Below are positions 34,757-36,667 of a stretch of 64,000 nt of DNA, piece after piece. Origin of the DNA: Candidatus Gastranaerophilales bacterium (GTDB lineage Bacteria > Cyanobacteriota > Vampirovibrionia > Gastranaerophilales > Gastranaerophilaceae); contig CALUUN010000003.1 in assembly GCA_944323995.1 (NCBI GenBank), positions 1-64,000 of the forward strand, in the 5' to 3' direction. Position 1 is the first letter of the stretch; each line of letters opens with the position of its first letter. The translations under genes and the position numbers were made by a program. The notes beneath the pieces were generated by a model. It worked only from the letters and a program-made list of their open reading frames with translations. It did not search any database and was not told where the DNA came from.

Positions 34757-35878
34757 TTACCGAATCTGTACCGGCATTATCAGGCAGACAAAGTCTTCTT
34801 CTTCATTCGGTCTTAAAACCGTTGCTGAAAGCGCCGTGTTCAAACCGATTTTGACTTCTTCACCGTCTATATTCTTTAGCGCCTCAAGCATGTATTTATA
34901 GTTAAATGCGATTAACAACGGTTCTGACGTGTATTGAATATCAATTTTTTCTTCTGATTTACCGGAATCCGGTGTGTCTGCGTTCAGGGTCAATTCGTTA
35001 TCCGCAAAGTTTAATTTTACAATACTTGTTTTGTCGTCAACCATAATTGACACACGCTCAAGAGCCGAAATAAATTGTGAAACATTTACAAGCGCCTCTT
35101 TCGGGCTTTCGGCCGGTATTAAAAGATTGTATTTCGGGAACTGGCCTTCCAGAAGTCTTGAAATCGTCATTGTTTTTTCGGATTTTATTATTAATTTTGT
35201 TTTTTCGGTATAGATTTTGATTGAATCTTCATCAATGTATGCGCTCATTTTTATAAACTCATTCAGCGCTTTGGCAGGGATTATGAGCTGTTTGTTTTTG
35301 TTGTCTTTGTTGTCAACGTGTTCTCTCACACGCGCAAGTCTGTTTCCGTCAGTGGAAGCTATTTCCAAAATCTGGCCGGAAATATCGCAGACTATCCCTG
35401 ATAAAAGGTTGCTTGTTTCATAAGACGCTGCGGCAAATCCCGCCTGTCGAACCGCTTTTGCAAACGGTTTTAATTCGATTTCTATGCTTTCGTCTTCGTT
35501 TAATTCTATGTTGTATACTTCTGACGGAAATTCGTTTGCTGAAATCCCGATTATATCAAATTTTGAATTCTGGCAGGTTATGTTTACTATTGTTTCGCCT
35601 TCGGCCATTTCAAAAGTTATGAGTTTGCTGCCGAGTTTGGAAACTATTTCGTTTAAGGTTTTGGAAGGAAGTGTTATTTTGCCTTCTTCTTCAACCTGTG
35701 CATCTACAAGCGCAGTTACTGTCAAATCAAGATCTGTCGCAACAAGTCTTATTGTGCTTTTGTCGACAGTTTCTATTAATATGTTCAAAAACACCGGCTG
35801 AAGCGCTTTCATGCTGGTTGCACGTTCAACTATTTTTATCCCGTCAAATAAATCCTCTTTTTTTACAACAAACTTCAT
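34757..35878 (-). CDS. dnaN: DNA polymerase III beta sliding clamp
   Basis: This 373-residue processivity clamp has three similar domains: MKFVVKKEDLFDGIKIVERA at the start, the middle TDGNRLARVREH segment, and the C-terminal DFVCLIMPVQIR, matching the conserved LPMR-type end. AAAAGGAG precedes the ATG. It is transcribed away from the putative oriC next to it. Confidence 0.95.
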   Translation of the reverse strand: MKFVVKKEDLFDGIKIVERATSMKALQPVFLNILIETVDKSTIRLVATDLDLTVTALVDAQVEEEGKITLPSKTLNEIVSKLGSKLITFEMAEGETIVNITCQNSKFDIIGISANEFPSEVYNIELNEDESIEIELKPFAKAVRQAGFAAASYETSNLLSGIVCDISGQILEIASTDGNRLARVREHVDNKDNKNKQLIIPAKALNEFIKMSAYIDEDSIKIYTEKTKLIIKSEKTMTISRLLEGQFPKYNLLIPAESPKEALVNVSQFISALERVSIMVDDKTSIVKLNFADNELTLNADTPDSGKSEEKIDIQYTSEPLLIAFNYKYMLEALKNIDGEEVKIGLNTALSATVLRPNEEEDFVCLIMPVQIR

Positions 35879-36301
35879 CTTATTTAACTCCTTTTTATAT
35901 TTCCCTTATTTGAATTTTATAATAAAATAGTATTCAAAACAAACAAAAAATAATAAAAATTAACAATATTTTTTAATCCGTTTTTTGTTCAAAACTTTTT
36001 ATATTAATTATTATATAAATAAATAATATAAATAATTAATCATAATAATAAGCCCAAAAAATTTGTAGAAAAAGGTTCGAAAGCCCTGCGCTGCGCGGAG
36101 ATTTACGGTAGAAAAAATTGTAGAAAATTTGTTATAAAAAATATTAAAATTGTAGAAAACACAAAAAAACAAAAAACAATGTAGAAAACACATGACTTTT
36201 CTACCGTTTTCAACAACGTTTTCTACAGCAATCCTCCGCCTGAATGATTTTTTTAAGTTTTTTACTAAAATGACCGTTATTATTATAAAAAGGAGGTATT
36301 T
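35879..36301. other. putative chromosomal replication origin (oriC)
   Basis: This 423-bp noncoding gap beside dnaN has a very AT-rich stretch (about 35990-36050, almost only A and T) followed by seven copies of TGTAGAAAA or its complement TTTTCTACA: 36064, 36107 (GG variant), 36119, 36151 and 36180 in one orientation, 36197 (ACC variant) and 36219 in the other. The box differs by one base from the cyanobacterial DnaA box TTTTCCACA. A GC hairpin CTGCGCTGCGCGGAG sits between boxes 1 and 2. The role is inferred from layout. Confidence 0.72.
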
Positions 36302-36667
36302 ATGTTTAATTCGGTAAATAATCCCTTCAATCAGAAAATAGAATCCTCAACATCTTCCGACAGCAACAAACACCAAAAACCAAGAGAACAAAAAAAAGAA
36401 GAAAAAAAATATCTTGAACAGGAAGAACAGGACGAAGTTAAAATCGGCGGACTTCCGCTTTTGACGGAAGATGAGATTCTTATGATGACCAAATCCTACA
36501 TAAATAACCTCAAATCAGAACATCAGGATAACCAAAAAATTATTAATAAATTGGATAAGTTTCTCGAAAACTTTGACGTGAAAAAATTCATGAAAAAAAA
36601 TCCCTGCATGACAAGTCCTGATTTCTATATGGTTATGTACAACGAAACAGAAGGCCTTGTGAAATGA
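36302..36667 (+). CDS. hypothetical protein next to the putative origin
   Basis: This 121-residue hydrophilic protein has a low-complexity, charged N-terminus (EQKKEEKKYLEQEEQ, about 30-45) and a helical C-terminal half (DEILMMTKSYINNLKSEHQ, then NKLDKFLENFDVKKFMKKN). No family is recognised. AAAGGAGGT lies just upstream. It overlaps the next gene by four bases. The location beside oriC raises but does not prove a replication link. Confidence 0.65.
   Translation: MFNSVNNPFNQKIESSTSSDSNKHQKPREQKKEEKKYLEQEEQDEVKIGGLPLLTEDEILMMTKSYINNLKSEHQDNQKIINKLDKFLENFDVKKFMKKNPCMTSPDFYMVMYNETEGLVK

What the first reader, a model, noticed from the sequence alone, without database searches (positions are those of the whole stretch)
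35879..36301. Putative oriC with seven TTTTCTACA boxes beside dnaN
A gene-free 423 bp next to dnaN carries an almost pure A/T unwinding tract and seven 9-mers in two opposed groups (five forward, two reverse). The 9-mer differs by a single C-to-T from the cyanobacterial DnaA box. The order AT tract, boxes, neighbouring dnaN is typical of bacterial origins. A one-base shift of the box suggests a matching change in DnaA domain IV.
Basis: partly seen in the sequence, partly recalled or inferred. Interest (0 to 1): 0.65.

Follow-up and report, generated by a model that had tools for sequence, protein, structure and literature searches.

The report
Replication origin with altered DnaA boxes
This is the chromosome's replication start site in a non-photosynthetic gut relative of cyanobacteria, and throughout that class one letter of the otherwise near-universal start signal has changed, together with the one DNA-reading residue of the starter protein DnaA that is otherwise always aspartate.

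Summary
The 423-bp gap beside dnaN holds five exact TTTTCTACA plus two TTTTCTACC: 7 of the 8 such sites on the 181-kb contig. It is oriC: 12 nt past the innermost box lies a DnaA-trio array beside an A/T tract (a BUS module), the layout is conserved across the genus, and third-codon GC skew flips within about 1-1.5 kb of this locus in a congener and a family member, and in the same 10-kb bin in a third genome. The window's own contig is rearranged and its skew inconclusive. Residue 433 is Asp in 30/30 DnaAs outside the class and 0/107 inside it, the only domain-IV column without overlap. Boxes switch in step: position 6 is C outside (121 sites, 3 expected) and T or A inside (520 against 59; C 12 against 10). 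GC content does not explain this. The organism is a Gastranaerophilales bacterium; its class includes Vampirovibrio and Obscuribacterales. It is an ordinary kind of object, a cyanobacterial-type oriC, carrying a class-wide recoding of the DnaA-box contact that I found undescribed. That K433 reads position 6 is inferred, not shown.

The parts
35879..36301 (.). oriC intergenic region between dnaN and a divergent ORF
   Evidence: skew pivot at the orthologous site in G013, G106, G046
34757..35878 (-). dnaN, beta clamp, read away from oriC
   Evidence: Pfam PF00712/PF02767/PF02768
35986..35994 (-). DnaA box TTTTGAACA on the far side of the A/T tract
   Evidence: sequence; conserved in most of the genus; GA is the second commonest 5-6 pair in K433 genomes
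36005..36052 (.). A/T tract (96% A/T), presumed duplex-unwinding element
36043..36051 (-). DnaA-trios TTA TTA TTA (3'-AAT-5' on the bound strand), followed by TGA TTA
   Evidence: BUS definition in PMC8287927
36064..36072 (-). DnaA box TTTTCTACA, innermost, 12 nt from the trios (BUS anchor)
36107..36115 (-). DnaA box variant TTTTCTACC
36119..36127 (-). DnaA box TTTTCTACA
36151..36159 (-). DnaA box TTTTCTACA
36180..36188 (-). DnaA box TTTTCTACA
36197..36205 (+). DnaA box variant TTTTCTACC, opposed group
36207..36215 (+). DnaA box-like TTTTCAACA (position 6 = A)
36219..36227 (+). DnaA box TTTTCTACA, opposed group

Best explanation
The region is the chromosomal origin oriC of a Gastranaerophilales bacterium. 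DnaA, encoded elsewhere (contig C5, between a SpoU-type methylase ORF and a downstream ORF that looks like ruvA), binds the two opposed groups of 9-mers through domain IV. From the innermost box (36064-36072) it is loaded across a 12-nt spacer onto DnaA-trios and opens the adjacent A/T tract; the clamp gene dnaN lies alongside. In this class the DnaA/box code was rewritten, apparently once near the base: Asp433, at the N-end of the recognition helix, was replaced, mostly by Lys, and box position 6 went from C to T (or A), so TTTTCCACA became TTTTCTACA / TTTTGAACA / TTTTATACA. Shown by computation: oriC anatomy, skew pivot in relatives, residue change, box change, and their exact coincidence by clade. 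Inferred: that DnaA binds these boxes, and that Lys433 accepts T or A at position 6 (donor to O4 or N7) and disfavours C.
For: Box cluster beyond chance. Box-12 nt-trio module conserved in the genus and throughout the class, and in outgroups with TTTTCCACA/TTATCCACA at the same place. Third-position GC skew pivots at the orthologous site in G013 (minimum 144,540; oriC about 143.83-144.2 kb), G106 (312,676; 313.67-314.1 kb) and, at 10-kb resolution, G046. Residue 433: D in 30/30 outside, 0/107 inside the class; only domain-IV column with zero overlap. Position 6: C 121 (3.1 expected) in D433 genomes; T 375 (25), A 145 (34), C 12 (10) in K433 groups. Contrast survives GC content: class genomes of 44-54% local GC carry T or A, outgroups of 23-29% carry C. 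Model of domain IV keeps the DnaA fold, Lys at the N-end of the recognition helix, matching 3PVP and 1J1V.
Against: GC skew of the window's own contig does not turn at 36 kb. The D433-to-nonD change is essentially one event on the tree, so the covariation is one strong contrast, not many; deep support is weak. Published contact of D433 is base 7, the neighbour of the changed base (PMC8235120). No binding or coverage data. In f1 the trios start 3'-AAT rather than the preferred 3'-GAT.
Confidence: 0.85

Rival explanations
1. It is oriC, but the C-to-T shift is only drift towards A/T in AT-rich genomes, with no change in DnaA specificity.
For: The window's genome is AT-rich and TTTTCTACA is one A/T step from TTTTCCACA.
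Against: Class genomes with 44-54% local GC (f8, f9) still have T or A at position 6, while D433 outgroups with 23-29% GC keep C in 23 of 23 TTDTC-N-ACA sites. C5 and C8 of the box are kept; only position 6 moves.
Confidence: 0.07
2. It is oriC with a real specificity change, but another residue of domain IV (or several) reads base 6, and loss of Asp433 is a bystander.
For: Published contact of D433 is base 7; the window's family also has a one-residue deletion before 433 and changes at 423; f12 with T433 has a further altered box.
Against: 433 is the only domain-IV column that separates the groups without overlap; next best overlaps 15%. Position 423 and the deletion vary within the class while T6 does not.
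Confidence: 0.2
3. The 9-mers are operators of a transcription factor for the divergent promoters of dnaN and ORF 36302, and replication starts elsewhere.
For: The region is a divergent promoter region, and the skew minimum of the own contig is at 87 kb.
Against: Skew pivots at this site in three relatives. Boxes and trios keep the BUS geometry. Where dnaN has moved away (G016, G022) the cluster survives without it. It is the only paired cluster in the genome.
Confidence: 0.03

Closest known systems
Cyanobacterial oriC beside dnaN with TTTTCCACA boxes (Synechococcus, Anabaena, Cyanothece; PMC4674748)
   Same: Place beside dnaN, dnaA not necessarily adjacent, clustered 9-mers plus A/T stretch; same first five and last three box letters.
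   Different: Position 6 of the box is T (or A) instead of C, and DnaA has Lys instead of Asp at 433.
Basal unwinding system (BUS) of bacterial origins (B. subtilis and others; PMC8287927, PMC10721633)
   Same: Box, 12-nt spacer, at least three trios with central A; residues equivalent to B. subtilis E183, N187, R202, E228 kept in DnaA.
   Different: Single anchor box at the spacer; trios in this family start with 3'-AAT rather than 3'-GAT; DnaA has a 4-6-residue insertion in the initiator-specific motif of most family members.
Lineage-specific DnaA boxes: Thermotoga maritima (ACCTACCAC) and Epsilonproteobacteria (T at position 5)
   Same: Precedents for a clade with its own box and altered domain-IV contacts. 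T. maritima DnaA also lacks the Gly-Gly and has Ser at 433.
   Different: Different positions and residues; here a one-position change with one fully discriminating residue, traced over a whole class.

Membership tests
Bacterial oriC | Cluster of DnaA boxes in an intergenic region | tested here: met
   7 TTTTCTAC[AC] in 423 bp, P about 8e-23
Bacterial oriC | A/T-rich unwinding element with adjacent DnaA-trios (BUS) | tested here: met
   box-12 nt-TTATTATTA, conserved
Bacterial oriC | GC-skew switch at the locus, window's own genome | tested here: inconclusive
   cumulative minimum at 87 kb on a block-shuffled contig
Bacterial oriC | GC-skew switch at the orthologous locus in relatives | tested here: met
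   G013, G106, and G046 at 10-kb resolution
Bacterial oriC | Replication starts here (coverage peak, bubble, ARS activity) | not testable with these tools
   no reads or experiments
Bacterial oriC | Binding of DnaA to these boxes | not testable with these tools
   needs EMSA or footprinting
Canonical DnaA box TTWTNCACA | C at position 6 | tested here: not met
   T or A at position 6 here and in the class
DnaA protein family | DnaA AAA+ and helix-turn-helix domains | tested here: met
   PF00308, PF08299, PF11638 above cut-off; fold matches 3PVP and 1J1V
DnaA protein family | Asp433 of the RDHTT motif | tested here: not met
   Lys here, never Asp in the class
Cyanobacterial-type oriC | Located next to dnaN | tested here: met

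The most novel reading that the evidence does not exclude
At the base of a whole bacterial class the DnaA/DnaA-box code was rewritten by a coupled swap (Asp433 to Lys; box C6 to T/A), giving an initiator-origin pair orthogonal to that of other bacteria, including the cyanobacterial sister lineages.
Probability: 0.7. Interest if true: 0.72.

Novelty: new variant of a known kind. Interest (0 to 1): 0.6.

Why it matters
Asp433 has been described as highly conserved among all bacterial classes, and origin predictors assume TTWTNCACA; both fail for a whole class, which includes gut and groundwater bacteria and the algal predator Vampirovibrio. The coupled change gives a concrete, testable specificity code for the essential initiator (which residue reads which base), a route to orthogonal laboratory origins, and the right box for finding oriC and measuring growth rates by coverage in these mostly uncultured bacteria.

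Tried and rejected
Raw GC skew of the window and contig C3: weak, no clean turn at 36 kb; third-position skew of C3 also unclear, plausibly because of block shuffling against G013. An EM motif search with a simple background fell into poly-T in AT-rich sets; replaced by counting TTDTNNACA with positions 5-6 free. AT drift rejected by GC contrast. Apparent K433 DnaAs titled Chloroflexi, Actinobacteria and Proteobacteria (L341, L348, L326) fall among the f8/f13 DnaAs, the group that includes Obscuribacterales, so no independent origin of the change outside the class was found. Four family members without boxes at dnaN (G016, G017, G018, G022): in two, a cluster sits about 5 kb away; in two none was found. 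Literature searches gave no oriC or DnaA-box paper on Melainabacteria or Gastranaerophilales; the Fujikawa structure paper is not held.

Full report
OBSERVATION. The 423-bp gap 35879-36301 lies between dnaN (34757-35878, -) and a divergent ORF (36302-36667, +). It carries five exact TTTTCTACA and two TTTTCTACC, five of the seven on the minus and two on the plus strand, plus TTTTCAACA at 36207 and TTTTGAACA at 35986. Seven of the eight TTTTCTAC[AC] of the 180,859-bp contig are here (Poisson P about 8e-23). The 9-mer is otherwise rare in the genome (26 against 91 for the reversed control), and all four paired matches in the 1.75-Mb genome are here.

WHO. The window is G000:C3:1-64000 of a 1.75-Mb, 99.9%-complete draft. 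G041:C3 (304,270 bp) matches CALUSR010000003.1, Ca. Gastranaerophilales. G046:C3 (932,007 bp) matches CAJFVJ010000003.1, Ca. Adamsella avium. Both are in the window's order. G092:C23 (615,297 bp) matches Vampirovibrio chlorellavorus NCIMB 11383 LAPX01000004.1, and G074:C6 (47,400 bp) matches an Obscuribacterales MAG; both are in the same class.

IT IS oriC. In a 22-genome alignment of the region (window genus plus six family members) the most conserved columns are the boxes and one module: TTTTCTACA, 12 nt, TTATTATTACTATTAT. That is the published BUS: box, spacer peaking at 10-13 bp, DnaA-trios with a central A on the bound strand (PMC8287927). The same geometry (mostly 12-15 nt) is seen through much of the class, often with textbook CTACTACTACTA trios; in outgroups the box at that place is TTTTCCACA or TTATCCACA, mostly at 13 nt. 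Third-codon-position GC skew goes from negative to positive at the orthologous site: G013 (same genus) cumulative minimum 144,540 with oriC at about 143.83-144.2 kb; G106 (same family) minimum 312,676 with oriC at 313.67-314.1 kb; G046 (same order) sign change at the 10-kb bin holding oriC, cumulative minimum about 5 kb away. On the window's own contig skew is inconclusive (minimum 87 kb). That contig is cut into many blocks, mostly 2-16 kb, relative to G013, while the block from dnaN through oriC to 38.5 kb is intact. Where dnaN has moved (G016, G022) the box cluster survives about 5 kb away.

THE DnaA CHANGE. DnaA is single-copy on contig C5, not adjacent. Its recognition-helix motif is FN-KKHTTM against FGGRDHTTV in B. 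subtilis and E. coli. Over 138 DnaAs (one uninformative), residue 433 is D in 30/30 outside the class and in 0/107 inside it: mostly K; R in G016, G031 and f15; T in f12; G in f11; Q and N singly. It is the only domain-IV column with no overlap between the two groups. A motif scan of about 85,000 species genomes found [GND]RKHT[TS][IVA]LY in 47 loci; 44 have titles that name this class, cyanobacteria in the broad sense or no taxon, and three odd-titled MAGs fall inside the class on the tree. On the tree the D label needs two changes, with one origin not ruled out; support at the deepest branch is weak and two long-branched f9 rows stray. [quoted passage not shown] PMC5043019 lists 399, 423, 432-435 and 438-439 as base-contacting.

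THE BOX CHANGE. De novo 8-mers upstream of dnaN gave TTTTCTAC-type words in most K433 families and TTTTCCAC/TTATCCAC in D433 families. With positions 5-6 left free (TTDTNNACA), position 6 is C in 121 sites (3.1 expected) in 33 genomes outside the class; in 84 genomes of K433 groups it is T 375 (25 expected), A 145 (34), C 12 (10), G 20 (9). The commonest 5-6 pairs are CT, then GA and AT. GC content does not explain this.

MECHANISM. Shown: anatomy, skew pivot in relatives, co-occurrence of residue and base change. Inferred: an Asp at the helix N-end accepts hydrogen bonds from amino groups on the C6-A7 step; a Lys there donates and so tolerates O4 or N7 acceptors (T6, A6) and disfavours C6. 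AlphaFold places this Lys at the N-end of the recognition helix, and the model matches 3PVP and 1J1V. The weak points are that the published D433 contact is base 7, not 6, and that the switch happened essentially once.

KNOWN OR NEW. Place and plan are those of cyanobacterial origins (PMC4674748). Thermotoga and Epsilonproteobacteria are precedents for lineage-specific boxes. A class-wide loss of Asp433 with a C6-to-T/A box was not found in the searched library. DoriC itself could not be queried, so an uncommented database prediction may exist.

Noticed in passing
L001:388-1776 (own DnaA) and family f1 DnaAs: The initiator-specific motif that grips DnaA-trios has an insertion (4-6 residues in most f1 members, QHGGE here), and f1 trios start TTATTATTA (3'-AAT) instead of CTACTACTA (3'-GAT). 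f6 has an insertion with CTA trios, so the link is not strict.
   Followed up: partly
family f11 (L219-L223): DnaA has Gly433, Asn434 and Asn or Lys at 399, that is, the main base contacts are lost, and no DnaA boxes lie upstream of dnaN. How these genomes mark their origin is open.
   Followed up: no
family f12 (L185, L190-L192, L232, L234, L238, L240): DnaA has Thr433; next to good DnaA-trios the box-like word looks like TTWCTTACA, changed at positions 4 and 5 too. Based on few sites.
   Followed up: partly
window contig C3 against G013:C1: Congeneric genomes are shuffled in many small blocks around the origin, often inverted; the dnaN-oriC-38.5 kb block is kept.
   Followed up: partly
L373 (G016), L374 (G022): In two family members oriC boxes lie about 5 kb upstream of dnaN rather than beside it; G016 has Arg433 and still uses TTTTCTACA.
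   Followed up: partly
36077-36101: A G+C-rich stretch (GAAAGCCCTGCGCTGCGCGGAGA) sits between the innermost box and the next; relatives have no such stretch there.
   Followed up: no
36302-36667: The divergent neighbour of oriC is a 121-aa protein without a Pfam match, kept beside oriC in the congener G013.
   Followed up: no
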